From: Nitrosopumilus piranensis
GTDB taxonomy: Archaea > Thermoproteota > Nitrososphaeria > Nitrososphaerales > Nitrosopumilaceae
DNA length: 64,000 bases
Assembly: GCF_000875775.1 (NCBI RefSeq)
Contig: NZ_CP010868.1
Coordinates: forward strand, 992,001-1,056,000
Direction: 5' to 3'
Notes under the pieces: generated by a model
The model's database searches: none
What the model was told of the DNA's origin: nothing
Seen by the model: only the letters and a program-made list of their open reading frames with translations
Program-made: the position numbers and the translations under genes
Shown: positions 6,799-24,928 of the stretch, in pieces
Layout: each line of letters starts with the position of its first letter
Position numbering within the stretch: the first letter of the stretch is position 1

Positions 6799-7221
6799 TT
6801 ATATTTTTCTTAATTTTGCTACGCCCGTATTGATATGGTTAATTATTGTAGGCAGTGGTGTTCCAGGACCAAATACATGGTCAACTCCAGCTTTAATCAA
6901 TTCTTTATGATCAATTTCAGGAATTACTCCTCCGCCAACAACTAGGACATCGTTGATCTTTTTCTTTTTTAGAGCCTTTACTACTCTTGGAAATAATGTC
7001 CCGTGCGCACCATTAAGTAAACTCATAGCAATTGCATCAACATCTTCGTCTTCTGCAATCTGTGCTACTCTTTCTGGTGTTGCAAAAAGTCCAGAGTAAA
7101 TTACCTCCATTCCTGCATCTCTGAATGCTCTACACAAAACAAGTGCTCCTCTATCATGCCCATCAAGACCTAATTTTGCTACTAAAATCTTGATGTTTCT
7201 TGTTTGTGTTTTTTGTTTCAT
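6799..7221 (-). CDS. mcmA2: Methylmalonyl-CoA mutase, small (B12-binding) subunit
   Basis: Cobalamin-binding subunit of a split methylmalonyl-CoA mutase. The hallmark LDGHDRG (DxHxxG, His being the lower cobalt ligand) is followed by AMSLLNGAH and VVGGGVIP, the other B12-domain blocks. I choose the ATG at 7221 (140 residues), because the further 19 upstream residues need a TTG start and look unlike the family. It is convergent with ilvC and divergent from pepN, and is therefore separated from the large subunit at 11226 by about 4 kb and opposite in strand. It acts with MeaB and the large subunit in the 3HP/4HB cycle. Confidence 0.93.
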   Translation of the reverse strand: MKQKTQTRNIKILVAKLGLDGHDRGALVLCRAFRDAGMEVIYSGLFATPERVAQIAEDEDVDAIAMSLLNGAHGTLFPRVVKALKKKKINDVLVVGGGVIPEIDHKELIKAGVDHVFGPGTPLPTIINHINTGVAKLRKI

Positions 7222-7358
7222 GATGTTATTCGTTATTTTGTATATTTTAAAGGCTTTATTTGATTTTCGAACCCTCAAAACGAGGGGGGTTAAATTTGAT
7301 TTTCTGATTTGTAATTTAATAGAAAATCTACTTAAAGAGTATCAAAATCACCTGAATC

Positions 7359-9851: not shown

Positions 9852-9852
9852 T

Positions 9853-10260
9853 ATGGCAAAAAAAATCCTTCCCGCAATATCTCTTGGAGTGCTGACCATT
9901 ATTGCATTAGTCTTTTTAACTGGAGGGGGAACTGATGACAAAGATGTACTCCGTCAGACTTTTGAAGTAGATGCTGTGTATTATGATACTGGTCATGTTG
10001 AGATTGCTTTTGTAGACAAGTCAGAAAAAACTAATTCTGTGGTAATGGAGATTCTTGGAATGGATGAAACATTTCAAAAAACATTTTATGATTCTCAGTT
10101 CATTGAGATAGTTCCATTCCCAAATGAACCAAAATATGGATGGGCGGTTCATCCAATTGTACTGGAGATAGAGCATTTAGAATTGGGTCATATTCAACTA
10201 AAGACTGAGATTCATCCGCTAGGAGATTCTATTCCTCCTGTGATTTATTCAAGGCCTTAG
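9853..10260 (+). CDS. Small membrane-anchored protein, unknown function
   Basis: A 135-residue protein with an N-terminal hydrophobic helix (about residues 5-24, LPAISLGVLTIIALVFL) after two lysines, then a soluble beta-rich domain probably outside the cell. No cysteine lipobox follows the helix, so it is an anchor or an uncleaved signal. It begins 1 nt after the aminopeptidase stop, hence cotranscription is likely. I do not recognise the family, and no catalytic motif is visible. Confidence 0.65.
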   Translation: MAKKILPAISLGVLTIIALVFLTGGGTDDKDVLRQTFEVDAVYYDTGHVEIAFVDKSEKTNSVVMEILGMDETFQKTFYDSQFIEIVPFPNEPKYGWAVHPIVLEIEHLELGHIQLKTEIHPLGDSIPPVIYSRP

Positions 10261-10303
10261 ATCGGATACAAGATTTTATTGCACCTCAAAAGATTATTCT
10301 GTA

Positions 10304-11221
10304 TTGGATTTGCTTGTTGACTTGAAGAAAGGAAGACGTGGTGCAATTGCTAAAGCCATAACTATGGTAGAAAATGATCAAAAAGAATCAAAAAAACTCT
10401 TAAAGAAAATTTTCAAAAATACTGGCACTTCTATTATTATTGGAATTACGGGACCTGCTGGTGCTGGAAAAAGCTCGTTGATTAACAAGACTGCTGTGGC
10501 AATGAAAAAACTGGGCACAAAACCTGCTGTTTTGGCAGTTGATCCTACCAGTCATGTTACTGGCGGTGCAATTTTAGGTGACAGAGTTAGGATGACTGAA
10601 TCAACTGACTCTGGAACTTATATTCGAAGTATTGCATCTCGTGGTGCCACTGGTGCAGTATCTCGCTCTTTACGAAACAGTATACGTGTTTTAGAATATG
10701 CAGGATTCAACCCAATTATTATTGAAAGTGTTGGTGCAGGACAAACTGAAGTTGAAATTTCAAATATTGCCGATATCACAGTTGTAGTCTTTAATCCAAA
10801 CACTGGAGACAGCATACAAACAATTAAGGCAGGTCTAACTGAAATTGGAGACATTTATCTTGTAAACAAGAGTGATCTTAGTGGAACAAATCAACTGTTT
10901 GATGCAGTACGTGATTTTATTGGAGACTCTGAACGAAATCCAACAATCCTTAAAACATCTGTAAAAAAGAATACTGGAATTACCGAATTTGCAAAAACTC
11001 TCAAAGATATGATGGCATTAAAAAAGAAATTAAAGAAGCAAAAGGACCAAGAACGATTAGAGGCAGAACTAAAAGATATTGTTTTAAATAACATACGTGA
11101 AAAGATTGATGTCATGTTGGATTCTGATAAAACATTTTCAAAATACCTAAAAAAATTACAATCAAGGGATATGGACCCATTTGACGCAGGAGAAAAAATT
11201 ACAAAATCAATGTTAAAGTGA
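10304..11221 (+). CDS. meaB: Methylmalonyl-CoA mutase-associated GTPase MeaB
   Basis: G3E-family GTPase that loads and protects the cobalamin cofactor of methylmalonyl-CoA mutase. Walker A is GPAGAGKSSL near residues 50-59, followed by the MeaB-type LAVDPTS block, ESVGAGQTE (switch II) and VNKSD (base recognition). The start is TTG at 10304; the protein begins with the standard helical arm (LVDLKKGRRGAIAKAITMVEND). Its stop is 4 nt before the mutase large subunit, a genomic pairing that separates MeaB from the related ArgK label. There is no fused B12 domain. Confidence 0.95.
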   Translation: MDLLVDLKKGRRGAIAKAITMVENDQKESKKLLKKIFKNTGTSIIIGITGPAGAGKSSLINKTAVAMKKLGTKPAVLAVDPTSHVTGGAILGDRVRMTESTDSGTYIRSIASRGATGAVSRSLRNSIRVLEYAGFNPIIIESVGAGQTEVEISNIADITVVVFNPNTGDSIQTIKAGLTEIGDIYLVNKSDLSGTNQLFDAVRDFIGDSERNPTILKTSVKKNTGITEFAKTLKDMMALKKKLKKQKDQERLEAELKDIVLNNIREKIDVMLDSDKTFSKYLKKLQSRDMDPFDAGEKITKSMLK

Positions 11222-11225
11222 TAAT

Positions 11226-12824
11226 ATGGCCACAAAAAAATCAAAACAAAAACAACCCGAGAAGAAGGTCTTTACTGATTCTAATTTTCCGGTAAAACGT
11301 ATCTATCAAAAATCCTCAAAGAAGAAACCTGTAGAAGATGCTGGTAAATATCCATTTACTAGAGGCATTCATCCTGGAATGTTCCGTGATAGATTTTGGA
11401 CCATGAGACAATATTCTGGATTTGGTGATGCCAAGCTTACTAATGAGAGATTCAAATTCATGCTTGAGAAAGGACAAACTGGGCTTTCAATGGCCTTTGA
11501 TCTTCCAACGCAAATTGGTTATGATTCAGATGCTCCACAAGCAGAAGGTGAAGTTGGCAAAGTTGGCGTTTCCATTACATCAATTAAAGACATGATGACT
11601 GCCTTTGATGGGATACCTCTTGGCAAAGTTAGTTCATCTATGACCATTAATTCTACAGCGTCAACACTACTTGCATATTATATTGCAGTTGGAGAATCTC
11701 AGGGATTCAAAAGTCAGGAATTGCGTGGCACAACTCAAAATGACATCCTCAAAGAATACATTGCAAGAAACACCTACATCTATCCACCACAACCATCTAT
11801 GAGATTAATTGGTGACATGATTGGGTATTGTGCAGAAAAAGTTCCTTCATGGTACCCTGTATCTATTTCTGGATATCATATGAGAGAAGCGGGATGTACT
11901 GCAACACAAGAAGTTGCCTTTACTTTGGCAAATGCCATAGCGTACATTCAAACTTGTTTGGATAAGGGACTAAAAATTGATGACTTTGCACCTCGTTTAT
12001 CGTTCTTTTTTTGTTGTACAATAGAATTCTTTGAAGAAGTTGCAAAGTTTAGAGTTGCACGTAAAGTCTATGCAAAAATTCTCAAAGATATGTTCCATGC
12101 AAAAAACCCAAAGTCATTACAATTAAAATTCCATACACAGACAAGTGGCGAATCATTAACTGCCCAACAACCTGACAACAACATTATTCGTGTAGCAATT
12201 CAAACTATGGCCGCAGTTGCCGGTGGTACTCAATCACTTCACACAAATTCAAGAGATGAGGCACTAGCACTCCCAACACAAGAATCTGCAAAAATAGCTT
12301 TGAGAACCCAACAAATTGTTGCACATGAGAGTGGAATTACAAAGACTGCTGATCCTCTTGGTGGCTCCTATTATCTTGAAGAGTTATCTGACCAGATTGA
12401 GGAAGGCGTTTGGAAATATCTCAAGAAAATCCAAAAGATGGGTGGTTCAGTAAAGGCAATTGAGAAAGGATTCTTCCAATCAGAAATTAGACAAAATGCA
12501 TATCGATTAAAGAAAGAAGCAGATAACGGTGAGAGAATCCTAGTTGGTGTTAACAAATATGTCGAAGAAGAAGAACAGCCAGAATTGCTAAGAATTGGCG
12601 GTAAAGTTGAGATTCAGCAGAAAAAGGCATTAAAAAAATTGCGTGCATCCAGAGACAAAAAGAAATGGGAAAAGGCACTATCTGCAATGCAGAGTGCAGC
12701 TGATACTGATGAGAATCTGATGCCTTACATAATTACTGCTGCAAAGGCATATGCTACTACTGGTGAAATTAGCAATACATTCCGTGAAGTATTTGGTGAA
12801 TACCGTCCAAAGGAGGTATTTTAG
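11226..12824 (+). CDS. mcmA1: Methylmalonyl-CoA mutase, large (catalytic) subunit
   Basis: The TIM-barrel substrate-binding subunit of B12-dependent methylmalonyl-CoA mutase, interconverting methylmalonyl-CoA and succinyl-CoA. Signature segments include YPFTRGIHPGMFRDRFWTM, SMAFDLPTQIGYDSD, and QTSGESLTAQQPDNN with the HTNSRDEALALPTQESAKIALRTQQI stretch near the end of the barrel. At 532 residues it ends before the B12 domain, which is supplied by mcmA2. It lies between meaB (4 nt gap) and the epimerase (0 nt gap), a complete functional block of the 3HP/4HB carbon-fixation cycle. Confidence 0.96.
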   Translation: MATKKSKQKQPEKKVFTDSNFPVKRIYQKSSKKKPVEDAGKYPFTRGIHPGMFRDRFWTMRQYSGFGDAKLTNERFKFMLEKGQTGLSMAFDLPTQIGYDSDAPQAEGEVGKVGVSITSIKDMMTAFDGIPLGKVSSSMTINSTASTLLAYYIAVGESQGFKSQELRGTTQNDILKEYIARNTYIYPPQPSMRLIGDMIGYCAEKVPSWYPVSISGYHMREAGCTATQEVAFTLANAIAYIQTCLDKGLKIDDFAPRLSFFFCCTIEFFEEVAKFRVARKVYAKILKDMFHAKNPKSLQLKFHTQTSGESLTAQQPDNNIIRVAIQTMAAVAGGTQSLHTNSRDEALALPTQESAKIALRTQQIVAHESGITKTADPLGGSYYLEELSDQIEEGVWKYLKKIQKMGGSVKAIEKGFFQSEIRQNAYRLKKEADNGERILVGVNKYVEEEEQPELLRIGGKVEIQQKKALKKLRASRDKKKWEKALSAMQSAADTDENLMPYIITAAKAYATTGEISNTFREVFGEYRPKEVF

Positions 12825-13220
12825 ATGAAAATTGATCATATTGCAATTGCAGTAAATGACGTTGAAGAGTCTGCCAAAGTGTATCAACAGGCCTTAGGTG
12901 TTGATTCTGTAGAGTTTGAAACCGTAGAATCTGAGGGTGTCAAAGTTGCAATTATTCATTTAGAAAATGGGCGTGTTGAGCTTATGCAGCCAACAAATGA
13001 TTCTAGTCCAATTAAAAAATTCTTGGAGAAAAAAGGACAAGGACTTCATCACATGGCATTAGAAACTGACAACATTGAAGGTGAGGTGGAAAGAATGGAA
13101 GGATGCGGTGTGCAATTCCTAGGTAAGATTAGACCTGGTTCTGCAGGCACTAAAGTTACTTTTATTCATCCAAAGTCCCTTCATGGTGTTTTGGCAGAAC
13201 TTTGTGCTCATCCAAAATAA
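12825..13220 (+). CDS. mce: Methylmalonyl-CoA epimerase
   Basis: Glyoxalase-fold metalloenzyme racemising (S)- and (R)-methylmalonyl-CoA so that the mutase can use it. The protein (131 residues) opens with KIDHIAIAV carrying the first metal His. It has QGLHHMALE with the second and the HPKSLHGVLAEL C-terminal block with the last Glu ligand. Its ATG directly follows the mcmA1 stop (TAGATG), consistent with a single mRNA meaB-mcmA1-mce. Domain order and length are normal. Confidence 0.95.
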   Translation: MKIDHIAIAVNDVEESAKVYQQALGVDSVEFETVESEGVKVAIIHLENGRVELMQPTNDSSPIKKFLEKKGQGLHHMALETDNIEGEVERMEGCGVQFLGKIRPGSAGTKVTFIHPKSLHGVLAELCAHPK

Positions 13221-13238
13221 TAATATTTTAAAAATAAT

Positions 13239-13796
13239 TTATTCCATCATCTTTAATGTGTCTGATGCAGTAATGATTCCAACAATTTTAGATTTTTTTG
13301 TAACAAGTATGCATTTTGAATATCGAATTAATGGAACAAGTACATTTGCTGGTGTCTCAAAATCAACAATTGGTGGAACAGGATCCATTGTATCTGCAAG
13401 TTTTGCATTCTTTAATTCAGCTTCTCCAATATCTGCCAGATGCTTTACAATTCCATCCTCTGAGACTACTCCTACTATCTCTTTTTCATCAAATACTGGA
13501 ATTTGACTGATTGATAATTGATGCATCTTCTTTATTGCATCATGAAGTGTATTTGATGGTTTCATCTTTACAATATCTTGGCTGCAAAAATCTCCTGCTT
13601 TGTGAGATGATGATCTTCCTTCTAGGTTAGATAAATTCTCAAAAATTTTTTTTGCAGTTTCATAACTTGGCTGACTTCGCCCTGATTCTATTTGATTAAT
13701 CATGGATGTACTTACCCCAGTCATTCCTGCAAGCTTTTTTTGGGTGATGCCTAATTTTTGCCTCATCTGCTTTATTGATTCGATATTTGGTAGCAT
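13239..13796 (-). CDS. XRE-type HTH regulator with two CBS domains
   Basis: A 185-residue fusion of an N-terminal helix-turn-helix (about residues 1-60: GITQKKLAGMTGVSTSMINQIESGRSQPS) with a tandem CBS pair (about 68-125 and 127-185: SISQIPVFDEKEIVGVVSEDGIVKHL and CILVTKKSKIVGIITASD). CBS pairs bind adenine nucleotides, so this looks like an energy- or ligand-sensing transcription factor. It is the last gene of the minus-strand run tpiA-ppdK, 42 nt downstream of ppdK, making control of that gluconeogenic pair a reasonable inference. It converges on mce. Confidence 0.88.
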   Translation of the reverse strand: MLPNIESIKQMRQKLGITQKKLAGMTGVSTSMINQIESGRSQPSYETAKKIFENLSNLEGRSSSHKAGDFCSQDIVKMKPSNTLHDAIKKMHQLSISQIPVFDEKEIVGVVSEDGIVKHLADIGEAELKNAKLADTMDPVPPIVDFETPANVLVPLIRYSKCILVTKKSKIVGIITASDTLKMME

Positions 13797-13838
13797 TTGG
13801 GATTTAGTAAGGCTTAATCTCTATTAAATTATACTGGA

Positions 13839-16502
13839 TTATTTTTTCTTTGAATACTCAATTGATGCTTGTGCTGCTGCAACAATTGCAATAGGAATTC
13901 TATGAGGTGATGCACTAACATAGCTTAATCCTGCTTTATGGCAGAATTTGATAGAACTTGGGTCTCCTCCGTGTTCTCCACAAATCCCAACTTCCATATT
14001 CTTTCTTATTCCTCGACCATTGGCAATTCCAATTTTGATTAAACTACCTACACCGTTAACATCAATTGATTGAAATGGACTTCTTTCTAACAGTTCTTTT
14101 TCCATGTATTCTGGAAGGAACTTTCCTTCTACATCTTCTCTACTGAAACTAAACGTTCCTTGTGTCAAGTCATTAGTACCAAAACTAAAGAATTCTGCAG
14201 TTGTTGCAAGTTCATTGGCTGTTAATGCAGCTCTTACTACCTCAATCATTGTACCAAAGTTAATTGTTAATTTCATTTTGTTTTTTGTCTCAACTTCTTT
14301 TTTTATTTTATCATAAATCTTCTTTATGTGGTTTAATTCTGCAATACTGCTAATTTGTGGAATCATAATTTGTGGATGTGCTTTTACTTTTTTCTTTGTC
14401 AATTCCACTAATGCCTCAAACACTGCACGAATCTGCATCTCATAAATTTCAGGATACGTAATTCCCACTCTTACTCCCCTGTGTCCCATCATTGGATTGA
14501 CTTCTGCCAACTCCCTTGCTCGCTTTAAAATAATTTTGGCCTCCTTGAGTTCTTTTGTTGCCTTTTTCTTCTCTAACTTGTGGATTTTTTCAGCTAGTTC
14601 TTCAGGATTTGGCAAGAATTCATGTAATGGTGGATCTAGTAATCTGATTGTTACTTCGTATCCTTCCATTGCTTTTAGAATTTGAATAAAGTCGCTTTTT
14701 TGTAATTGCCCTAATTTTTTGAGAACTTTTCCTCGTTCTTCAATATTTTCAGCCATGATCATATCGACAAATAGGCCAATCCTGTCACTTGCATTAAACA
14801 TCCTCTCCGTTCTACAAAGACCAATACCTTGAGCACCGAATTGTCTTGCAAGTTTTGCAGCTTCTGGAGTATCTGCATTGGCACGAATGCCTAATGATTT
14901 TGTTTTTTGTGCCCAACTTAAAATCTGCTCAAAGTCCTTTGTTACTTTTGGCTCTACAGTTGGAACTTCTCCAATTAGGACTGTACCTGCACTACCATCA
15001 ATGGTAATAGTTTCACCTTCTTTTACTGTGGTGCCGTTTGCAGCACATGTGTTGTTGTCATAATTGATTTTTAATTCTGAGCATCCTACAATGCATGGTT
15101 TGCCCATTCCTCTTGATACGATTGCAGCATGAGATGATTTTCCACCTAAACTAGTCAAAACTCCTTCTGATGAAAAGAATGCCGGCACATCTTCGGGTTT
15201 TGTTTCTTTTCTAATTAAGATAATTTTTTTTCCTGCCTCTCCTAACTCTATTGCCTTTTTTACATCAAATACTGCAATTCCACTTGCAGCTCCTGGAGAC
15301 GCTGCAATTCCTTTAGCTAATTGCTTGTGATTTTTAACTTTTGATTCATCCATAGTTCTATGAAGTAATGCCTCTAGCTGTTGTGCAGGAATTCTTGTCA
15401 GTGCTTTGTTTTTATCAATTAGTTTTTCTTTTACCATGTCTACTGATGTTTTAATTAATGCCATTGCACTCATCTTTGCAGTTCTTGTTTGCAACAGGTA
15501 AAATTTTCCTTGCTCTATGGTAAATTCAATATCTTGTGGTTCTCTGAAATGTTTTTCTAATTTTGAGCATGCGTTACTTAATTCCTTGTAAGATTTTGGC
15601 ATTTCTTTTTTTAATAGAGAAACATTTTTTCCAGTTCTAACTCCTGCAACCACATCTTCTCCCTGTGCGTTGATAAGATATTCTCCCTCAATCTCTTTTT
15701 TACCATTATGTCCATTTCTTGTAAATACTACTCCAGTTGCACTGTCATCTCCCATGTTTCCAAATACCATGGTAACAACATTGACTGCAGTTCCATTTGC
15801 AATGTCTTTTGTTATGTTGTTTTTTTCACGATAAACAATTGCTCTCTCACCCATCCAACTTTTGAATACGGCCTCAATTGCTAATCCTAACTGCTCATTA
15901 GGTGAATCTGGAAATTTTCTTTTTGTGTGTGATTCGCAGATTTTTTTATACTCTGATACAATTTTCTTTAGTGATTCAACACTTAACTGACTATCATCTT
16001 TTACTTTTTGTTTAGTTTTTGCAGATTCAAGCACATGATCAAATTTTTCATCATTTACTCCAAATACTACTTTACCAAATAATTGAATAAACCTCCTATA
16101 GGAATCCCATGCAAAACGTGGATTCTTTGTTTGCTTTGCTAGGCCTCCTACGGTTTTTTCATTTAACCCTAAATTCAAAATTGTGTCCATCATTCCTGGC
16201 ATTGATATGGCTGCCCCTGAGCGAACTGATACTAGTAATGGGTTTTTAGTTGAGTTCCATTGTTTTCCTGTCTTCTTTTCAATTTTTTCAATATTTTTCA
16301 TAACTAATGGCATTACATCTTTTGGAAGTTTTCTGTTATTATCATAGTATTTGTTACAAACCTCAGTCGTAATTGTAAATCCTGGTGGTACCGGAAGCTT
16401 TAGTCGAGTCATTTCGCTTAATCCTGCGCCTTTCCCGCCTAGAAGCATCCTGTTTTCGCTATCTGCCTCCTCAAATGCATAAACTGGTTTTGTTTTTGCC
16501 AT
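13839..16502 (-). CDS. ppdK: Pyruvate, phosphate dikinase
   Basis: Three-domain enzyme interconverting pyruvate, ATP and Pi with PEP, AMP and PPi; in an autotroph it feeds gluconeogenesis. The N-terminal ATP-grasp domain opens with GGKGAGLSEMTRLKLPVPPGF. The swivelling phosphohistidine is in GGKSSHAAIVSRGMGKP near residue 457, and the C-terminal PEP-binding barrel has GLCRTERMF, the FSFGTNDLTQ block and CGEHGGDPSS with the proton-donor Cys. The 887-residue length is typical of PPDK and longer than PEP synthase. It lies 27 nt downstream of tpiA on the same strand. Confidence 0.97.
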   Translation of the reverse strand: MAKTKPVYAFEEADSENRMLLGGKGAGLSEMTRLKLPVPPGFTITTEVCNKYYDNNRKLPKDVMPLVMKNIEKIEKKTGKQWNSTKNPLLVSVRSGAAISMPGMMDTILNLGLNEKTVGGLAKQTKNPRFAWDSYRRFIQLFGKVVFGVNDEKFDHVLESAKTKQKVKDDSQLSVESLKKIVSEYKKICESHTKRKFPDSPNEQLGLAIEAVFKSWMGERAIVYREKNNITKDIANGTAVNVVTMVFGNMGDDSATGVVFTRNGHNGKKEIEGEYLINAQGEDVVAGVRTGKNVSLLKKEMPKSYKELSNACSKLEKHFREPQDIEFTIEQGKFYLLQTRTAKMSAMALIKTSVDMVKEKLIDKNKALTRIPAQQLEALLHRTMDESKVKNHKQLAKGIAASPGAASGIAVFDVKKAIELGEAGKKIILIRKETKPEDVPAFFSSEGVLTSLGGKSSHAAIVSRGMGKPCIVGCSELKINYDNNTCAANGTTVKEGETITIDGSAGTVLIGEVPTVEPKVTKDFEQILSWAQKTKSLGIRANADTPEAAKLARQFGAQGIGLCRTERMFNASDRIGLFVDMIMAENIEERGKVLKKLGQLQKSDFIQILKAMEGYEVTIRLLDPPLHEFLPNPEELAEKIHKLEKKKATKELKEAKIILKRARELAEVNPMMGHRGVRVGITYPEIYEMQIRAVFEALVELTKKKVKAHPQIMIPQISSIAELNHIKKIYDKIKKEVETKNKMKLTINFGTMIEVVRAALTANELATTAEFFSFGTNDLTQGTFSFSREDVEGKFLPEYMEKELLERSPFQSIDVNGVGSLIKIGIANGRGIRKNMEVGICGEHGGDPSSIKFCHKAGLSYVSASPHRIPIAIVAAAQASIEYSKKK

Positions 16503-16529
16503 GCAAAAATGCGTAAATTTTTTGGCTTT

Positions 16530-17186
16530 TTAAACTAATGCCTTGGCAAATTCCGAAATTATTTTATCCCAATTTTTTGCTTTGATTATACCACTTGCAA
16601 CTAGGATTCCTTTGGAACCTAATTCCACTGCCTTTGAAACATCTTTTCCAGAAACAATTCCTGCTCCACAAAGAAGTTTTGTATTGTTTTGTGCACTTTT
16701 TACAGCAATTGTTGCTTCTGTTATCAATTCTGGTCTTTCAGTTGATACAGCTTTGCCTGATCCTATGAGTTCTGGTGGCTCTATTGCAATATAATCTGGA
16801 TTTAGTTTGGCATATTTTTTTGCCTCTGCCACATCTTTAACACAAACAATTGATGTCATCTTGAGATCTTTTAATTTCAATACTAATTTTTGAATTTCCT
16901 TTGATGTAATTCTGTGTTCACTGTGATTGATTAACGATCCATTCACTTTTGATTTTTTTAACAGTTCTGGAATTACAAAACCTGTTGTGCTTCCCACTTT
17001 GGAATTATCTACATGTTGTGCAAAAATTGGAATTGAACTGGTAGCTACCACTCCAATTAGATGTTGAGGTGGACAGATTGCAATTTTTATTTTAAATTTT
17101 TTTGAAATTTTTTCAGCAGTTTTTACAAATTTTATAATTTTGTCCCCTGAAATTTCTTCATAATTTTTACAATTGATTACAAACAT
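16530..17186 (-). CDS. tpiA: Triosephosphate isomerase (archaeal type)
   Basis: Isomerises dihydroxyacetone phosphate and glyceraldehyde 3-phosphate. The 218-residue length is the compact archaeal form. Active-site residues are visible: Asn5 and Lys7 (NCKNY), His88 in NHSEHR, and catalytic Glu136 in IEPPELIGSG, followed by the phosphate-binding LCGAGI and LVASGI loops. It is transcribed with ppdK, linking triose metabolism and PEP formation. Immediately upstream, on the other strand, the accessory island begins with a recombinase at 17273. Confidence 0.96.
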   Translation of the reverse strand: MFVINCKNYEEISGDKIIKFVKTAEKISKKFKIKIAICPPQHLIGVVATSSIPIFAQHVDNSKVGSTTGFVIPELLKKSKVNGSLINHSEHRITSKEIQKLVLKLKDLKMTSIVCVKDVAEAKKYAKLNPDYIAIEPPELIGSGKAVSTERPELITEATIAVKSAQNNTKLLCGAGIVSGKDVSKAVELGSKGILVASGIIKAKNWDKIISEFAKALV

Positions 17187-17272
17187 CTTCTTTGAGCCTT
17201 CTTGTATTGTATTTAATCTTTAATTAAATGAATCAACTTGACGTTTAAACACCCTTTTTACCATAATATAGC

Positions 17273-18330
17273 GTGAAAAAATCAGGTACATTAAACAAGT
17301 CTCGATCAATCCTTATCTTTGAACAATATGTTCAAAGCCCTAAAACTAGAGAGCAATACCTGTATCATTTAACCAAATTTGCAGAGCATTATCATCTAAA
17401 ATCCATTGATTCTATCTTATTCTTTGACATCAATGATCTAAAGGAGAAAATTGAGGACTATGTTTATTATTCAAGAATGAGGGTAAAAGTGTAAGCTATA
17501 TCCGTTTGATTCTCTTTGCATTACAGTCATTCTGTGATGCTAATGATATTGAGGGGGTTAATTGGAAAAAAATTAGAAGATTACTTGGTAAAAAGCAGAA
17601 ACCAAAGAAATCAAGACCTTTTACAACTGATGAAATCAAACTCATGTTAGGTGTTACAAAAGAACTTAGAAGTAAGGCAATTCTTTTGTTTCTAAGTTCT
17701 TCAGGTGTTAGACGAGAGGCTTTGACAGAATTAAAGATAGGACATCTAAAAGAAATGCCAAATGATTGTCTAGCAGTTACGGTTTATGCTGATACTGATG
17801 AAGAATACATTACTTTCATCAATAAAGAAGCTAAAGAAGCACTACCAAGATACTTTGAAAAAAGAAAGAAGGATGGAGAAAGTTTAGATCCTGATCACCC
17901 TGTATTTAGAACAAAGTACACATTAGCTATTTCAAAACCTAAAGTTGTTTCTGAAAAGACAGTTTCAAATTTAGTTCATAGAGCAAAAACAAATTCTGGA
18001 ATCAATCTAAACGATGAACCAAATATGTTGTGTCATGCCTTTAGACGAAGATTCAACCCAATTCTAAAATTAAACAACAATGCAAACAACCCCTTAATTG
18101 AACGCCTTATGGGCCATGATATGAAGTTGGATAATGCTTATTTTCAACCAACAATAGAAAATCTATTTGAAGAATATCAAAAGGGCGTATCAAATCTAGT
18201 AATCGATGATAAGGAACGAGTCTTAGAAGAAAAGAAGAAAGTAGAACAAGAAAAAGAGGAACTAATCAAAATAAAGGAAGAAAATGAGAATTGGCAAAAG
18301 AAATACGCCCATGAAAGAAGAAAACAGTAA
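17273..18330 (+). pseudogene. Tyrosine recombinase/integrase, frameshifted
   Basis: Two adjacent frames encode one thaumarchaeal-type integrase. The first (17273-17494, GTG start) is the core-binding SAM-like domain with SPKTREQYLYHLTKF. The second, opening around 17482 in the -1 frame, carries the catalytic domain. Catalytic residues are present: Arg in SSSGVRREAL, HAFRRRF (HxxR), MGHD, and the nucleophile Tyr in NAYFQP. The break lies in ATGAGGGTAAAAGTG, where one missing base in the G or A run would restore frame. After the TAA at 18328 the frame continues with YTKEQVDELLKNLKK to 18387, suggesting an added stop. Confidence 0.85.
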
Positions 18331-18397
18331 ACAAAATATTATACAAAAGAACAGGTTGACGAACTACTAAAAAATCTAAAAAAATAATCTGAACTCG

Positions 18398-18417
18398 AAT
18401 GAAGTTTTATCTTCGTT
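18398..18417 (+). terminator. Hairpin after the recombinase
   Basis: AATGAAG and CTTCGTT pair over 7 positions, including one G-T wobble, around a TTTTAT loop. It sits just past the recombinase reading frame and before the next small gene. It may terminate or process the recombinase transcript; archaeal termination depends mainly on T-runs, so this is weak. Confidence 0.3.
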
Positions 18418-18435
18418 AACATCAAAATTATAACA

Positions 18436-18579
18436 ATGAGTTTATTTGTCCAAATGAAAAAAAGTTCAACATTATATTATAGAAAAAAACATCATCTATG
18501 CCGTAACAAAAATGACAAGTGCGGGTGTGATTGTCACCTAGTCGAAAAGAATCAACACAAACTAGACCAGGGGGTCTAA
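18436..18579 (+). CDS. 47-residue basic protein with a CGCDCH cluster
   Basis: A small ORF from ATG at 18436 to TAA at 18579, directly followed (1 nt) by the next small gene. The protein is very basic and has Cys22, Cys29, Cys31, Cys33 and His34 (CRNKNDKCGCDCH), which could bind a metal ion. There is no recognised family. The tight spacing to 18581 and the shared compositional shift (more G+C, use of CGG, CCC and CGT codons) support it being part of a mobile-element operon. Confidence 0.5.
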   Translation: MSLFVQMKKSSTLYYRKKHHLCRNKNDKCGCDCHLVEKNQHKLDQGV

Positions 18580-18580
18580 C

Positions 18581-18796
18581 TTGGGGCGTTTACTAAAAGC
18601 ACGAAAGCGAGCACAAAATAAGGTTAATTCCGCTAATCGAATCAAGCGTGACATCGTTAAACAGGGTGGGCGGTTCATATCTTCAAATGATAGAAGCAAG
18701 CAACAGGCCGACCAACAACTAAAGGACGCCTCGCTTAATGATCCCGTAGCACAGATTAACGCCTTAGAAAACCAATTTGTAGCAAGCGGGGATTAA
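18581..18796 (+). CDS. 71-residue basic protein, N-terminal half of a split reading frame
   Basis: Starts with TTG at 18581, 1 nt after the upstream small gene, preceded by a G-rich stretch that may act as a ribosome site. The product is rich in Arg, Lys and Gln and helical (LLKARKRAQNKVNSANRIKRD). It stops at TAA just after QFVASGD, but the -1 frame continues smoothly as LTPAEIDGINKTRSG, so this is probably the first half of a protein of about 150 residues broken in a GGGG run at 18788-18791. Base composition is clearly unlike the core genes. Function unknown. Confidence 0.5.
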   Translation: MGRLLKARKRAQNKVNSANRIKRDIVKQGGRFISSNDRSKQQADQQLKDASLNDPVAQINALENQFVASGD

Positions 18797-19041
18797 CCCC
18801 GGCAGAAATAGACGGCATCAATAAAACCCGAAGCGGTCAGGGGTTTAGAAAAGGATCCAGTAAGCAAACTATTGAAGTAGTAAAGAAACAAATCCGCGAT
18901 AGGGTATCAAGGGATGCTCAAATAAAACAAGCAAAATTAGATAAAATTAAACAACTAGAATCTGAAATTACAGCATTAAAGAAACCCGCTCGCGCTTCAT
19001 GTCCCGGCCGTATAAGAATCGCAAAATTGCGAAGTCAATAA
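18793..19041 (+). pseudogene. C-terminal half of the split basic protein
   Basis: An 82-codon open frame with no ATG, GTG or TTG start near its beginning. It overlaps the stop of 18581-18796 and reads LTPAEIDGINKTRSGQGF, then a Lys-rich coiled-coil-like stretch (IKQAKLDKIKQLESEITALKK) before a basic tail. It appears to be the continuation of the upstream gene in the -1 frame. One extra G in the GGGG run would join them. It may be decay, a sequencing undercall or recoding. Its end overlaps the next small gene by about 43 nt. Confidence 0.5.
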
Positions 19042-19202
19042 TAAAAGAAAAAGAGCAAGCAATAGTAAATTTATGTGGGGATCTTATAACCATTGATAAA
19101 AACAATAAAATCACATTACAAAAACAACAGGCAAAAATAATGAATGAATATTCTAATCTCCGAGTTGCTTTCTACAGTAACATCAAACCGAATGAACTAT
19201 AA
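18999..19202 (+). CDS. 67-residue small basic protein, unknown
   Basis: ATG at 18999 inside the tail of the preceding frame, stop at 19202. The protein begins SRPYKNRKIAKSIIKEKEQ and is helical and charged, without motifs I recognise. It is the last of four closely packed small frames that share the unusual composition of this stretch; a virus- or plasmid-derived operon is a plausible source. Just downstream are two identical operator-like repeats. Confidence 0.5.
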   Translation: MSRPYKNRKIAKSIIKEKEQAIVNLCGDLITIDKNNKITLQKQQAKIMNEYSNLRVAFYSNIKPNEL

Positions 19203-19211
19203 TTTTTGTAA

Positions 19212-19259
19212 ATGTTTGTTCAAATGAACACATAATTTTGATGTTTGTTCAAATGAACA
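19212..19259. promoter_or_regulatory. Tandem operator-like repeat upstream of the wHTH gene
   Basis: Two identical 19-base direct copies of ATGTTTGTTCAAATGAACA at 19212-19230 and 19241-19259 (29-base period). Each contains the imperfect palindrome TGTTCA-AA-TGAACA. The spacing is close to three helical turns, as expected for cooperative repressor dimers. They lie about 100 bp upstream of a winged-helix regulator, a candidate binder. Confidence 0.55.
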
Positions 19260-19362
19260 TTTTCTAATTTAAATTTCAACTGTAAAATATATTCAATCCA
19301 AATTGAAACAAATAATAAATACCATGAAAATAATAGCATCATACTATAATATTTGATAAATC

Positions 19363-19656
19363 ATGGTAAAAAAGAAACTACAAAGATTTGATCTCAAAGT
19401 TTTACTGCGTCTGCTTACTGTAATGTATGAATCTGGCCATGAAAAGAGGACAAATCTGGCGCTAAATGCAAAGCTTAGCTATGATACATGCGTATCATAT
19501 CTTGAAATGTTAGAGTTTTTGGGATTTGTAACCAAGACCAAGAGATACCCACATCAGGTTTATGACATTACCGCTCATGGAATTTTACTGTGCAAGAAGA
19601 AACTTGATGTAGAGTTTGACAAAAAATATAACGCAATTCCGACAATTTTGGAATGA
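19363..19656 (+). CDS. Winged-helix DNA-binding protein
   Basis: A 97-residue protein resembling archaeal winged-helix regulators: helices RFDLKVLLRLLTVMYESG, then TNLALNAKLSYDTCVSYLEMLEFLGFV as the helix-turn-helix with its recognition helix, and a wing (TKTKRYPHQVYDITAHGILL). No sensor domain is fused. It sits between the tandem TGTTCA-AA-TGAACA repeats upstream and a 22-bp palindrome downstream that precedes the secreted protease gene. It is thus a likely local regulator of itself and of that gene; this is inference from position only. Confidence 0.75.
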   Translation: MVKKKLQRFDLKVLLRLLTVMYESGHEKRTNLALNAKLSYDTCVSYLEMLEFLGFVTKTKRYPHQVYDITAHGILLCKKKLDVEFDKKYNAIPTILE

Positions 19657-19670
19657 CACTCACCATGTAG

Positions 19671-19692
19671 ATACTATCTATGTAGATAGTAT
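19671..19692. promoter_or_regulatory. Perfect 22-bp palindrome upstream of the protease gene
   Basis: ATACTATCTA-TG-TAGATAGTAT: two perfect 10-base arms with a 2-base centre, 59 bp upstream of the protease ATG and 15 bp after the wHTH stop. Its symmetry and position suit a dimeric repressor site; as RNA it could also form a terminator-like hairpin for the wHTH transcript. Confidence 0.5.
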
Positions 19693-19736
19693 GTGATTGA
19701 GTAGTATCCATATAACGAGCGCGGCTTATTAGACTA

Positions 19737-19750
19737 TTCCAATATTGGAA
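19737..19750. promoter_or_regulatory. Perfect 14-bp palindrome abutting the protease start codon
   Basis: TTCCAATATTGGAA is fully self-complementary and ends at the base before the ATG at 19751. A protein bound here would cover the start of a leaderless transcript. A TTG inside it (19745) could also start translation, but the ATGs at 19751 and 19757 fit the signal peptide better. Confidence 0.35.
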
Positions 19751-20950
19751 ATGACAATGACTAGTAAAACGAAAATTTCATTGGCTTTAGTTGCAATTGC
19801 AGCTGCAATTATTCTTCCAGTATCCGCAATCAGTATTGATGCTGCTCCAGATACAGGAAATAATGCAGCCTTGGCAGAAACTGAACGAATCAATAAAATC
19901 GCAGAGCCATATTTTGCAGCAAAAGATCAATTGAATAGAGCCGAATTTGAACTAAAAACACTTCAAGCCAATGGCACATCAGCACAAGTATCTGACAAAC
20001 AAACTCAGATAGATCAACTAAAAGATGAACTAGTTAGTTTGAAAAAAATAATTGCTGAAGCTGAAAGAGAAACAATTGAAAAATACAAAATTGAACCAAT
20101 TCTGGAGAAGAAACTAAGAACAGCACAATCTTCTATTGATCACAAAGATTTGCCAGTTAGTTCTACTTCTGTGAGTGGATTAGAAAAAGTATTAATCATC
20201 AATTTAGATGAATCACGTTTTGAAGAAGGTAAAGATAGAGCATATTATGTTGCTTTATTTGAAGAAAGATTCTCCGACATACCTGTCAAAATAAGATTTA
20301 ATGTTGCTGTGGCTGAAAGTTGTAATGGTGTAGGAAGTAACTGTGATCCATTAGTAGGCGGAATCAAAATTGAAGCAAAAAACCACGGTTATTGCTCAAT
20401 GGCATTACCAATTGAGCGAAATGGTGTTGATGGATTCCTTACTGCTGCTCATTGTGTAGATGATGGTTCAGGTTCAGCTGATGACGTTTTCCAACCAACA
20501 GAAGATTGGCTTGGATGGAACAAAGTTGGAGATGTATCTATCATTGCAGACAATGCAGATTGTGACTGTGCTTGGGTAGATCAAAGCAGTTCTGAAACAA
20601 ATGAAGAAGCTGTTTGGGATGGTTATAACTCATGGGAATATATAACAAGTTATAACAACAGGCCAACAAGTGGAACATATGTTCTAGTTCATGGTGCAAC
20701 AAGCTCTTTAGGTTGGACAACAGTAGATGATCCAAATTCATCATGGTATAACCCTGATACGGGAATTACTTATGATGCAGTTCTTACAGTAGCTCATGTT
20801 ACTGCTGGTGGTGACAGTGGTGGTGCATGGACTAATTGGGATTCTGATGAGTTTATGGGAATTCATGCTGCAGGGGATTCTGCAGGTTCCTATTTCACAC
20901 CTTGGGAAAACGTCAATGATTCAACAACCGGTGTAGGTCCATTAGGATAA
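19751..20950 (+). CDS. Secreted chymotrypsin-like (S1-fold) serine protease
   Basis: About 399 residues. The N-terminal signal peptide (basic TSKTK, hydrophobic LALVAIAAAIILPVSA) is followed by a charged coiled-coil stalk (about residues 45-125), then a protease domain. Catalytic motifs are clear: TAAHC with the His near residue 234, an Asp in the DCDCAWVD region, and GDSGGAW with the Ser near 356. Several Cys residues could form disulfides. It is exported and probably acts on extracellular or envelope proteins. It lies in the accessory island behind palindromic operator-like sites. ATG 19751 or 19757 are both possible; TTG 19745 seems less likely. Confidence 0.88.
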   Translation: MTMTSKTKISLALVAIAAAIILPVSAISIDAAPDTGNNAALAETERINKIAEPYFAAKDQLNRAEFELKTLQANGTSAQVSDKQTQIDQLKDELVSLKKIIAEAERETIEKYKIEPILEKKLRTAQSSIDHKDLPVSSTSVSGLEKVLIINLDESRFEEGKDRAYYVALFEERFSDIPVKIRFNVAVAESCNGVGSNCDPLVGGIKIEAKNHGYCSMALPIERNGVDGFLTAAHCVDDGSGSADDVFQPTEDWLGWNKVGDVSIIADNADCDCAWVDQSSSETNEEAVWDGYNSWEYITSYNNRPTSGTYVLVHGATSSLGWTTVDDPNSSWYNPDTGITYDAVLTVAHVTAGGDSGGAWTNWDSDEFMGIHAAGDSAGSYFTPWENVNDSTTGVGPLG

Positions 20951-20977
20951 ATCACCCTTTCTTTTTTATTTTAAAAT

Positions 20978-21220
20978 ATGAATATTCTAGTTTATATTGC
21001 AATTGCAACAATTACTGTAATAGGTATCGCAATCAGTGTTATTTTCTTTTTGAATTTCACTCCTACTGAAAAATTAGAATTATGTGCCGGAATCTATGAT
21101 GATATGATAAAAAATAAAAATTCTGAAGAATTACGGTGGCAATATGATGCAAATAATTGCTCAGATTCGATCTTGCAGTGGGCACCTCTAGCAGAATCAG
21201 AAGTGACAATTCCAGAGTAA
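20978..21220 (+). CDS. 80-residue single-span membrane protein
   Basis: An N-terminal transmembrane helix (NILVYIAIATITVIGIAISVIFFLNF) and a short acidic extracellular tail with two Cys (LCAGIYDD and NNCSD), perhaps a disulfide. It begins 27 nt after the protease stop in the same direction, so it may be cotranscribed and could be a membrane partner or inhibitor of the protease. That is inference only; no family is recognised. Confidence 0.6.
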   Translation: MNILVYIAIATITVIGIAISVIFFLNFTPTEKLELCAGIYDDMIKNKNSEELRWQYDANNCSDSILQWAPLAESEVTIPE

Positions 21221-21307
21221 AAAGACATCCACGATTATTACGTCAAGGAATAGTATTGGTGTAAGGATGAGCAATAATACCTTAATCCTGACTTGTAACC
21301 ACAAGGC

Positions 21308-21648
21308 ATGGGCAAGAATAAAGTCATACTGCGCAGAAGCAGAATCTCAAATTATCTTGATGAACATGAGACAGTGGGAATTGACCAGCCAAAACCAATT
21401 TCTGAAGAACTTGGAATAAACTATGACACTGTAAAAAATGACCTGCGTTGGTTTGACAACCAGTTAAAGAATAGACTCAAGGGGATAATCTACATGTGTT
21501 TTTGAAAAAGACTTTATCCAAAAGAGACCGCATACACCAAATCCAACTTGAGGTAAAAGAGATTGCAAGAAACAGCGAGGATCCACATGTGCAGCTAAAG
21601 GCATACCATGTTGAACTCAAGGCAATACATGACGAGTTTGATATATAG
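21308..21648 (+). pseudogene. HTH-plus-helical DNA-binding protein, frameshifted
   Basis: The first frame (21308-21505) has an HTH-like segment (PISEELGINYDTVKNDLRWF). It runs out as GIIYMCF and stops, whereas the -1 frame from about 21481 continues GDNLHVFLKKTLSKRDRIHQIQ and ends KAYHVELKAIHDEFDI at a TAG (21646-21648). The switch falls between 21475 and 21505, which contains GGGG and TTTTT runs. The joined product of about 112 residues, HTH then charged helices, recalls phage small-terminase or plasmid proteins, but that likeness is weak. Treat as a broken island gene. Confidence 0.6.
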
Positions 21649-21692
21649 TCTGATGGCATTGCTCTAATCCAAGACGAGTTAGAATCAAGGAA

Positions 21693-21833
21693 ATGTGGCA
21701 GACAAAGCTAAGCAGGAAACTGTCCCAGAATAATGAATACTGCTCCTTTCCAGTACTGACATCCAACCTCTATGACTGGGCAAATACAGTAAGGACAAAC
21801 ATCGGAAACGAAAAAAGAAATTTCAAGAGATGA
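21693..21833 (+). CDS. 46-residue ORF, possible gene fragment
   Basis: ATG at 21693 to TGA at 21833, with LSRKLSQNNEYCSFPVLTSNLYDWANTVRTNIGNEKRNF. The frame is open back to about 21656, so it may be the C-terminal remnant of something larger. There is no recognised family. It lies among degraded genes of the island, so it is listed with low confidence. Confidence 0.25.
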   Translation: MWQTKLSRKLSQNNEYCSFPVLTSNLYDWANTVRTNIGNEKRNFKR

Positions 21834-21860
21834 TTGTTCTATTAGGATTCAAGTATTGAA

Positions 21861-22027
21861 TTGAGAAAGATAAATCTGGACATCAAAGATAAAGATTATC
21901 TTGATTTTCTGCCAATCTGTATCGAGGAGGAATTATCAGTTGAAGATAAACTCAAAAACATCATAAAATATCATCTAATTACCTAAATAGGAATAGAGTA
22001 AAACTAAGGAATCAAAGATTGATGTAA
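21861..22027 (+). pseudogene. Decayed copy of the small gene at 48484-48648
   Basis: TTG at 21861 begins RKINLDIKDKDYLDFLPI, then EEELSVEDKLKNIIKYHLIT and a TAA at 21984. The intact relative at 48484 has the same layout (REIHLKLNDQDYFGFLSV, NLTVEEKLKQIINYHLIVY) and runs on to LKNEHLM. Here the matching tail (NRVKLRNQRLM, stop 22025-22027) is in the -1 frame, so about 2 extra bases, or 1 lost, at TAAAT broke the gene. The comparison gives direct evidence of decay at the right end of the island. Confidence 0.65.
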
Positions 22028-22077
22028 AAGCCGATCAAATGGGGTTTAGCTCGTAAAAGCATTATCATAGCTTTAAT

Positions 22078-22359
22078 TTAACCTCTTAATTTTCTATCGT
22101 ATATTTTCTTCATTCCTAATACTATCATCATCAAGGCAATTGCAGCTACATTTGTTCCAATGATAAACACGTCTTCTACTATTATCCCATAAATCAGCCA
22201 TAAAATTGCACCAGCTGATATGAATATCATCAAAAATTTTGAAACATCTTTGAGACTTTTTGTTTTATACCCCTTGTAGATTTGTTCTACCCATCCTGTT
22301 AGAATAAGAATCCCTGCAGTCACTCCTAGAATGGTAAGTAATGTACTGTCAACTTCCAT
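22078..22359 (-). CDS. SemiSWEET-type (PQ-loop/MtN3) membrane transporter
   Basis: A 93-residue protein with three transmembrane helices, the size of a SemiSWEET protomer, which dimerises to make a sugar or small-solute pore. The loop after helix 1 is GWVEQIYKGYKTKSLKDVS; most relatives have PQ where this protein has EQ, and the K[T/S]KS-D-S tail is retained. It ends 10 nt from polB's end on the same strand, so it is downstream of polB. The substrate is unknown. Confidence 0.8.
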   Translation of the reverse strand: MEVDSTLLTILGVTAGILILTGWVEQIYKGYKTKSLKDVSKFLMIFISAGAILWLIYGIIVEDVFIIGTNVAAIALMMIVLGMKKIYDRKLRG

Positions 22360-22369
22360 TCTATTTTCA

Positions 22370-24928
22370 CTAATTCCAGAAAAACTCGTCTAATCCTGTT
22401 TGCTTTGGTTTTCCCAAAATTGTGTCAAAATCCAAGTCCATTGATGATGTAATTTGCTCAAGTGTTGATTCCATAAATTCCATGTATTTTTTAGAATCAA
22501 TCTCTTCTTTTTTTGCCATTTCTACAGGCTTTACTCCGGGTTTGTTTAGAATTTTGATGTATGATATCCTATCTCCTTTTTTTATTTCTCTTATGGACTC
22601 TAATTGTTTTGCTGCACGGATATGCTGTGGGATTGTCTTGGTGTATTCAGATGGAGCCTTACTAAGCATTACATTAAATGTTAAATCTTCAAGAGGAATT
22701 TCTTTTGACTCGACTTTTTTTCCACATGTTGCAATTTTTTCAGAGATCTGTTTTTTTGCTTTTTCAAAACCCTCCACTGTTTGAACTTCAGATAACACGT
22801 CAAGTAATTCATAAAATAATTTTTTGATAAATGGAGGAGTATGAGACTTTTTTCCTGTCAGTCCTTTAACGTCTACTTTACCTTCTTTAGTAACTCCCAG
22901 ATAGTTTTTCTTTCTGTTACTTAGCACACAATATCTGTATGTTTTATCAATCTCTAAATCAACACCGTGATCTTTTTTTGCTTGTTCAATTACTGTTTGA
23001 ATTTGTTCTTTAGTTGGATTTTTTATAAATAACGAATCTGTATCTCCATAAAGTACTTCAATACCTGCAGATTCACATTTTTTGATTGTCTCTAAAATTG
23101 TATGTCTTCCAATTGCAGTAGTGGCTTCAGCTGCAGGCAGAAAATATAATGGAAATATTTCAGCTCCCATTACCCCATAGCTCGCATTTAGAATTACCTT
23201 AAGTGCTTGACTTACTACTGTGTATTGCTGCCTTTGTTCTTCAGTTAGTGTCTCTTTTTTTGATAAACTCTTGTAGTAATTTACCCTCAGATCTCTTAAT
23301 GAGCCAATAATCATTGATGTCAAGCCATTTCTCTTTGAGCATGTCCAGTGATTTGTTCCTGGGATTGAATTTTTTTTGCATTCTTCATGTGGGCATCTTA
23401 CTGTTTCATACGAAAGGTTTCTGACTTTGATTATGCTTGGATACAGACTTGCAAAATCCATTACAACTACATCAAAATGAATTCCTTCTTTTGGTTCGAC
23501 CACTAACCCTCCTCTGTATTTTTTATCTTTGATTACTGCATCTGACATCACTCCTTCTGATCTTCTTTCAAGTTCCTGCCTTTTTGGAATTAGGCAATTT
23601 CTTTTTCTATGCTCGTAATACAAAAGACTACGAATCCATTGAGATACTCCCATTCTTGCAATATCGTCAATTGGCATTCTTGCAATTCTTGAAATAATGA
23701 CTAGTAACTGCATCAACAATTCACTGTTAAAACTGGTAAGCTCGTACGTCAGCAGGGCATCATTGTAACAATAATTTGCAGTCTGGTAGAGTGATAATTG
23801 ATCAAACTCTAATCCATAGTCTATCTTTTCTTTTCCTAGTAACGCTTTTGAAACTTCGTTTAATGAGAAATTTGTATATTTTTGACTAAAGGCATAGATT
23901 TGAAATGATCTGTTTGAAAATGTTCTATACAAATCAAGATGAACCCCCTCTTTGAGTGTTGCAGAATCCCTCATCATATAAAATGGATTCTCTGAATTTT
24001 TAATCCCTAGTCTCTCTGCTCTGTTGTATAGATATGGCAAATCAAATTCATCTCCGTTGTATGTTACAACAAATGGAAATTCTTTGATTATCTTGAATGC
24101 ATCATAAATCATATCTTTTTCTTTATCTAAATCATAAAATGTCACTTTGATGTTTTGATCTAATTCATTTGTACCTTGTTCTGTTCCTTCTGTTTTGAGC
24201 ACAAAAATTTGGTCAAATCCATCTGTTCCCTTCATACCTATTGCTGTAACTTTTTTTTCTGCAATCTTTGGATCTGGTATTCTGCCAATTTCGGCTTCAA
24301 CTTCTATATCTACACTTAGTCTTTTGATCTTTGGAATTGGTTGGTTAAGTAAATCTGCCCATTCAGAAACAAATTTTTTGAATCCTTCAGCATCTACCAT
24401 GCTTTCACTATCAACCTTATCCCATAGCAAACTCTTTAGTGCAATCTTCACCTCGTCAGAAATTTCTAAATCATGTGGCTTTATCTTCCCACCAATTACT
24501 TCGTAATATTTTCCAACTATTAGCTTTCTATCATACAGATAATTCTCATAATACTTGATATCTGATTCCCATGTTTCAATTACATTTCTTATGCTTTTGT
24601 CTCCTGATGTTCCTCCAATTGCTAGCGGATCTGCTACAGTGATCTTTGACATGTCTATTTCTTTGTCTTTCATCAAATCATATCTCTGAACTGTTTTAAT
24701 TTCTAAAACATCGTCTCTTTCTTGAAGAAATTCTAATTCCTCTGGTGCAAGTCTTGAGTAGCAATATGGTTTATGGCCAATCTCATCTTTCCACAAAAAC
24801 AATTTTTGAGACTCTGGTTCGTAGAATTTTAGAACTGCTGATTTTGAATTGTTATCATACGTAGCTGATACTAACATAGCTGGTGGCATTGATTCAATTC
24901 TTTTTGATTCTTCCATATTGACTTGCAT
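22370..24928 (-). CDS. polB: Family B DNA polymerase
   Basis: An 852-residue replicative-type polymerase with 3'-5' proofreading. Exo I is SVDIEVE near residue 205 and Exo II is YNGDEFDLPYL. Polymerase motif A is DFASLYPSII near 493, motif B includes LKVILNASYGVMGAE, and motif C is YGDTDS near 628. The C-terminus KQTGLDEFFWN is a textbook PCNA-interacting peptide. The dCMP deaminase gene lies 4 nt upstream, so they are cotranscribed. Length and motif order are normal; no intein is present. Confidence 0.97.
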   Translation of the reverse strand: MQVNMEESKRIESMPPAMLVSATYDNNSKSAVLKFYEPESQKLFLWKDEIGHKPYCYSRLAPEELEFLQERDDVLEIKTVQRYDLMKDKEIDMSKITVADPLAIGGTSGDKSIRNVIETWESDIKYYENYLYDRKLIVGKYYEVIGGKIKPHDLEISDEVKIALKSLLWDKVDSESMVDAEGFKKFVSEWADLLNQPIPKIKRLSVDIEVEAEIGRIPDPKIAEKKVTAIGMKGTDGFDQIFVLKTEGTEQGTNELDQNIKVTFYDLDKEKDMIYDAFKIIKEFPFVVTYNGDEFDLPYLYNRAERLGIKNSENPFYMMRDSATLKEGVHLDLYRTFSNRSFQIYAFSQKYTNFSLNEVSKALLGKEKIDYGLEFDQLSLYQTANYCYNDALLTYELTSFNSELLMQLLVIISRIARMPIDDIARMGVSQWIRSLLYYEHRKRNCLIPKRQELERRSEGVMSDAVIKDKKYRGGLVVEPKEGIHFDVVVMDFASLYPSIIKVRNLSYETVRCPHEECKKNSIPGTNHWTCSKRNGLTSMIIGSLRDLRVNYYKSLSKKETLTEEQRQQYTVVSQALKVILNASYGVMGAEIFPLYFLPAAEATTAIGRHTILETIKKCESAGIEVLYGDTDSLFIKNPTKEQIQTVIEQAKKDHGVDLEIDKTYRYCVLSNRKKNYLGVTKEGKVDVKGLTGKKSHTPPFIKKLFYELLDVLSEVQTVEGFEKAKKQISEKIATCGKKVESKEIPLEDLTFNVMLSKAPSEYTKTIPQHIRAAKQLESIREIKKGDRISYIKILNKPGVKPVEMAKKEEIDSKKYMEFMESTLEQITSSMDLDFDTILGKPKQTGLDEFFWN

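What the first reader, a model, noticed from the sequence alone, without database searches (positions are those of the whole stretch)
18436..19202. Compact cluster of four small basic frames with unlike composition
Frames at 18436, 18581, 18793 and 18999 are packed with 1-base gaps or overlaps, are richer in G+C and in CGN/CCC codons than the core genes, and match no family I know. One has a CGCDCH metal-type motif. This is the most foreign-looking piece of the window and may be the cargo or structural genes of an undescribed thaumarchaeal mobile element or virus.
Basis: partly seen in the sequence, partly recalled or inferred. Interest (0 to 1): 0.6.

Follow-up and report, generated by a model that had tools for sequence, protein, structure and literature searches.

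The report
Decaying integrated element in ammonia-oxidising archaeon
The odd-looking little genes are the broken cargo of a small piece of mobile DNA that once inserted itself next to a sugar-transporter gene in a marine ammonia-oxidising archaeon; the insertion is clear-cut, but it is an ordinary kind of element and appears dead.

Summary
The frames exist and their composition really is unusual, but they are not four working genes. They lie inside a 4.85-kb insertion (17218-22081) between tpiA and a SemiSWEET gene. It is bounded by an 8-bp direct repeat (CTTTAATT), and the site is empty in all 14 other Nitrosopumilus loci compared. The insertion carries a tyrosine recombinase, the cassette, a winged-helix protein and a secreted trypsin-like protease. 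It fits the known class of thaumarchaeal cryptic integrated elements. The recombinase is split by a frameshift also present in the only other carrier found, MAG PfA. Frame 18793 has no usable start codon and is best read as the broken continuation of frame 18581. In PfA the cassette has a further frameshift and a nonsense change, and 7 of 8 scored substitutions alter the protein. PfA carries the locus in an ~11.4-kb tract of 99% identity inside 87-90% flanks, so the element probably moved by homologous recombination. Only frame 18436 (CGCDCH) has a relative elsewhere. There it is coupled to an intact 197-aa gene related to the start of a 1050-residue collagen-like protein in an integrase/primase-bearing region of a third species. 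No match was found in the phage, plasmid or IMG/VR searches that could be run.

The parts
17218..17228 (.). Left direct repeat (attL-like), CTTTAATTAAA; first 8 bases identical to the right copy
   Evidence: homology to 14 empty-site relatives ends at about this point
17273..17494 (+). Tyrosine recombinase, N-terminal fragment (73 aa), ended by a frameshift
   Evidence: 56-62% identity to N-termini of the closest Nitrosopumilus integrases; same frameshift in PfA
17506..18330 (+). Tyrosine recombinase, catalytic fragment (274 aa); SGVRRE, HAFR, GH and Y motifs present
   Evidence: Pfam Phage_integrase 6e-10; PHROG integrase 2e-12; 58% identity to an intact integrase in G058; motifs
18436..18579 (+). 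o1: 47-aa CGCDCH protein, likely small zinc-binding protein
   Evidence: 47% identity and a shared C-x6-CGCxCH pattern with a 43-aa ORF in G015
18558..18583 (.). Inverted repeat (11 pairs) over the end of o1 and start of o2
   Evidence: consensus match only
18581..18796 (+). o2: N-terminal part of a ~150-codon basic protein, TTG start 1 nt after o1
   Evidence: frameshifted to 46 aa in PfA
   Evidence: nonsense change Q18919* in PfA; predicted 40-residue helix
18999..19202 (+). o4: 67-aa frame overlapping o3 by about 43 nt; no relatives; possibly a third fragment of the same gene
   Evidence: both PfA differences change the protein
19212..19259 (.). Two exact 19-nt repeats containing the dyad TGTTCA-AA-TGAACA, upstream of the winged-helix gene; operator-like
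   Evidence: the only two exact copies of TGTTCAAATGAACA in the genome
19363..19656 (+). Winged-helix (HTH_45 / Sso10a-like) protein
   Evidence: Pfam 1.7e-8, NCBIfam Sso10a_fam 1.7e-7, below cut-off; 82% identical protein beside a tRNA-Ser in G100
19745..20950 (+). Predicted secreted trypsin-like protease (401 aa)
   Evidence: Pfam Trypsin 0.0017, just under cut-off; distant relatives in 6 other Nitrosopumilus genomes and elsewhere in its own
20978..21220 (+). 80-aa small membrane-type protein, no family
22071..22081 (.). Right direct repeat (attR-like), CTTTAATTTAA, overlapping the SemiSWEET stop codon (22078-22080, minus strand)

Best explanation
The cluster is the decaying cargo of a 4.85-kb integrated mobile element. 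Shown by comparison: an element inserted at CTTTAATT at the 3' end of the SemiSWEET gene and duplicated the 8-bp core. Inferred: the insertion was catalysed by the element's own tyrosine recombinase. The cargo originally held o1, a small Cys/His-rich protein, closely followed by a basic helical protein of about 150 residues (o2 plus o3, possibly also o4), then a winged-helix gene with operator-like dyads and a secreted protease. A frameshift then split the recombinase, fixing the element in place, and the cassette gene broke up without selection; hence several small overlapping frames. Its G+C-rich codon usage is left from the source replicon (inferred). The only other copy, in MAG PfA, most likely arrived by homologous recombination of flanking chromosome, not by the recombinase.
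For: Empty site in 14 of 14 other Nitrosopumilus loci, with homology resuming at 22071-22121; short direct repeat 4853 bp apart; integrase family and motifs with intact homologues next to variable genes in other Nitrosopumilus; shared frameshift in the integrase; o3 without a start codon; PfA has a 1-nt deletion in o2, a stop in o3 and 7 nonsynonymous to 1 synonymous change over o1-o4, at 10.4 substitutions per kb against 3-4 in the two adjacent genes PPDK and tpiA; ~11.4-kb tract of 99% identity inside 87-90% flanks; foreign-type codons.
Against: Only eight substitutions support loss of constraint, and the polB part has a similar rate (11.5 per kb), so the rate alone is not diagnostic. No intact homologue of o2/o3 was found, so the single-gene reading rests on frame geometry. 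The 8-bp repeat alone would not be significant without the empty sites. PfA is a MAG; a chimeric assembly of the tract cannot be excluded.
Confidence: 0.82

Rival explanations
1. The cassette is a functional set of small genes (for example DNA-binding or virion proteins) still expressed from an immobile element, with o2 and o3 joined by programmed -1 frameshifting.
For: o1 is open in both carriers and homologous to a gene in G015; o2 starts 1 nt after o1, as in coupled operons; o3 contains a confidently predicted 40-residue helix.
Against: In PfA o2 has a different 1-nt deletion and o3 a stop codon; 7 of 8 changes are nonsynonymous. I saw no classical slippery heptamer at the o2/o3 junction (read by eye, not computed).
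Confidence: 0.1
2. The cassette is the truncated remnant of a structural or surface-fibre gene of an unknown thaumarchaeal virus or satellite. In G015 an o1 homologue is coupled to a 197-aa gene related to the N-terminus of a 1050-aa collagen-like protein located near an integrase and a D5-like primase in G007. (This would add to the best explanation rather than replace it.)
For: o1-G015 homology; 197-aa versus 1050-aa protein: 37% over 174 residues, E 1.7e-17; collagen repeat, hits to phage tail fibres confined to that repeat, and a D5 primase; the length of 18581-19202 (about 207 codons) is close to 197.
Against: No significant similarity of o2/o3 to the 197-aa or 1050-aa proteins: Smith-Waterman p 0.46, HMM score below most shuffles, HHalign probability 0.2%. 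No phage or IMG/VR match for the 197-aa or 1050-aa proteins. G007 itself lacks an o1 homologue.
Confidence: 0.2
3. The four frames are chance ORFs in noncoding element DNA.
For: Shuffles give three or more such ORFs in 5.6% of cases, and an open run as long as o3 in 9%.
Against: o1 is conserved at 47% identity in another species; G+C by codon position is highest at position 1 in o2 (0.58/0.37/0.41) and falls as in core genes in o3 (0.48/0.45/0.29); ORF coverage p about 0.01.
Confidence: 0.12

Closest known systems
Thaumarchaeal cryptic integrated elements (Krupovic et al. 2019, PMC6563490), in particular the 2.6-kb NitUzo-E2
   Same: Integrase plus winged-helix protein plus a few unknown genes; short att repeat (their range begins at 8 bp); insertion at an intergenic site or 3' end of a protein gene; no recognisable replication gene
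   Different: Integrase frameshifted and cargo disrupted; carries a trypsin-like protease; second carrier best explained by homologous recombination. Whether this locus is in their Table S2 could not be checked (supplements not available)
Integrase-bearing region of Nitrosopumilus G007 (L139)
   Same: Integrase region; a small Cys-rich protein directly precedes a gene whose N-terminus is related to the gene coupled to o1 in G015
   Different: Carries a D5-like primase and a 1050-aa collagen-like protein; no o1 homologue; no detectable o2/o3 similarity; its ends were not mapped

Membership tests
Thaumarchaeal cryptic integrated element | Integrase gene | tested here: met
   gene is frameshifted
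Thaumarchaeal cryptic integrated element | Direct repeats bounding the insert, verified against empty sites in relatives | tested here: met
   8-bp exact core, 10 of 11 positions
Thaumarchaeal cryptic integrated element | No capsid, casposase or conjugation genes (otherwise another class) | tested here: met
   Pfam, PHROGs and NCBIfam on the main element ORFs
Thaumarchaeal cryptic integrated element | Listed in the published catalogue | not testable with these tools
   Supplementary tables not readable; term searches of the main text found no mention of a triosephosphate isomerase site or of a named element for this strain
Provirus | Major capsid protein, terminase or other virion hallmark | tested here: not met
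Virus of the phage or IMG/VR collections | Cassette proteins encoded in viral records | tested here: not met
   Phages by tblastn; IMG/VR close relatives only, for o2, o3 and o4; o1 too short for IMG/VR

The most novel reading that the evidence does not exclude
o1 plus a coupled basic helical protein is a two-gene module of an undescribed group of Nitrosopumilus viruses or satellites whose full-length form encodes a large collagen-like virion or surface fibre, and the window holds a collapsed copy.
Probability: 0.15. Interest if true: 0.5.

Novelty: new member of a known kind. Interest (0 to 1): 0.27.

Why it matters
Small broken elements are easily read as novel gene clusters. This one gives a mapped integration site (3' end of a SemiSWEET gene), a likely route of spread after integrase loss (homologous recombination between species differing by about 13%), and a lead to a poorly known family of thaumarchaeal element proteins.

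Tried and rejected
Structured RNA: no Rfam family in 17200-22200 beyond a sub-threshold snoRNA match at 17416. DNA matches of 77-82% at 18411-18462 in several genomes: in the two read (L004, L006) they fall on what looks like an aminotransferase coding sequence, out of register with o1; treated as chance. DNA matches at 18932-18962 are short and A-rich (coiled-coil codons of o3), also treated as chance. o2/o3 as homologue of the G015 197-aa protein: looked plausible by eye, not supported by statistics. Profile search of o1 in 250 family genomes: only G000, PfA and G015 convincing. AlphaFold of o1: pLDDT 50, uninformative.

Full report
The window is G000 contig 1, 992001-1056000, of a 1.713-Mb single-contig Nitrosopumilus genome (the genus follows from the PfA record title, and the 'same genus' kinship of G113). 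From its size it may be N. piranensis; this is from memory and was not verified.

The frames. Three of the four frames are start-to-stop ORFs and one is only an open run. The run called 18793 is open from 18760 to 19038 in the -1 frame relative to 18581, and no ATG, GTG or TTG in it starts an ORF of 30 aa or more. Frame 18999 overlaps its end by about 43 nt and lies one frame further back. Composition is unusual in the middle of the cluster, not throughout. The patch 18560-18880 has G+C 0.455, and the window's highest-GC 321-nt stretch starts at 18521. Codon usage of 18581 is far outside the core range. Frame 18436 is average and 18999 is AT-rich. The frames are more than chance, but moderately so.

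The surroundings. Fourteen homologous loci from other Nitrosopumilus genomes all join the tpiA upstream region directly to the SemiSWEET 3' end, with homology stopping at 17186-17241 and resuming at 22071-22121. The window has 4853 bp more. CTTTAATT stands at 17218 and again at 22071; the closest empty site (G020) reads ATCTTTAATTTAAC, the left half matching the window's left end and the right half its right end. The right copy overlaps the SemiSWEET stop codon. This fits tyrosine-recombinase integration into the 3' end of a protein gene, as catalogued for thaumarchaea with att sites from 8 bp and a median of 17 bp (PMC6563490).

The recombinase. Fragments 17273-17494 and 17506-18330 align to the N-terminal and catalytic parts of intact integrases, best match 58% identity in G058. 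The catalytic motifs are present, but the reading frame is broken near 17470. Half of the 100 relatives searched contain matches to this integrase, and 12 of 27 genera do.

The second carrier. Among 95 Nitrosopumilus genomes, only G113 (MAG PfA, JAEFCZ010000037.1) besides the window's own encodes the 18581+18793 protein. There the whole locus is 99.1% identical and shares the integrase frameshift. It has an added 1-nt deletion at 18626 (frame 18581 becomes 46 aa), a stop at 18919, and a 751-bp deletion (window 19391-20141) across a 10-bp microhomology that removes most of the winged-helix gene and the start of the protease gene. Over the four frames 7 changes are nonsynonymous and 1 synonymous; this is few data but fits no constraint. 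The 99% identity spans roughly 13390 to 24850; on both sides identity falls to 87-90%. The simplest reading is that one lineage acquired the element with its flanks from the other by homologous recombination. Because PfA is a MAG, assembly error is not excluded.

What the cassette was. o1 has one real homologue outside these two genomes, a 43-aa ORF in G015 with the same CGCxCH motif. It overlaps the start of an intact 197-aa basic ORF there. That ORF is 37% identical over 174 residues to the N-terminus of a 1050-aa protein in G007, which ends in a collagen-like repeat and lies in a region with integrase-like genes and a D5-like primase; a small Cys-rich ORF precedes it too. So the slot after o1 is, in a relative, filled by a gene related to a large fibre-like protein. 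I tested whether o2+o3 is a diverged member: it is not supported. The link is therefore positional only. The o3 part is predicted to contain a 40-residue helix. No relatives of o2, o3 or o4 were found in phage, IMG/VR or genome collections; the genome-contig scan and the plasmid search covered o2+o3 only. IMG/VR scans need near-exact 8-residue matches, so distant relatives would be missed.

The rest of the element. A block of 481 bp (19283-19763) with the winged-helix gene and the start of the protease gene is 82% identical to a block next to tRNA-Ser in G100, where a different secreted protein follows. This points to a reusable module. Two dyads (TGTTCAAATGAACA) 29 bp apart lie upstream of the winged-helix gene and are the only exact copies in the genome. 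Autoregulation by that protein is a guess.

Verdict. A foreign, integrated, now immobile and eroding element of a known class. The finding is right about foreignness and wrong about four intact genes; a viral nature is unproven.

Noticed in passing
window 13390-24850 versus G113 contig 25 (L037, L160, L161): About 11.4 kb at 99% identity between two Nitrosopumilus genomes whose flanks are 87-90% identical; looks like an interspecies recombination tract carrying the element.
   Followed up: yes
L037 reverse complement 841-1840 (between window 13219 and 13240): PfA has a 1-kb insert with what look like broken sensor-histidine-kinase pieces at the left edge of the recombination tract.
   Followed up: no
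window 19283-19763 and L110 8986-9466: Winged-helix gene plus start of a secreted-protein gene is 82% identical to a block beside tRNA-Ser in G100, where another secreted protein follows: a swappable module.
   Followed up: partly
L139 (reverse complement) 7035-15680: G007 has an integrase/D5-like primase region with a 1050-aa collagen-like protein preceded by a small Cys-rich ORF; no relatives of the 1050-aa protein in phage records or IMG/VR.
   Followed up: partly
window 18558-18583: 11-pair inverted repeat covering the stop of o1 and the TTG start of o2; could be a terminator or a start-masking hairpin.
   Followed up: no
G000 C1:819951-820727 (L041): A second, intact integrase gene of the same family (44% identity) elsewhere in the same genome, with variable genes downstream.
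   Followed up: no
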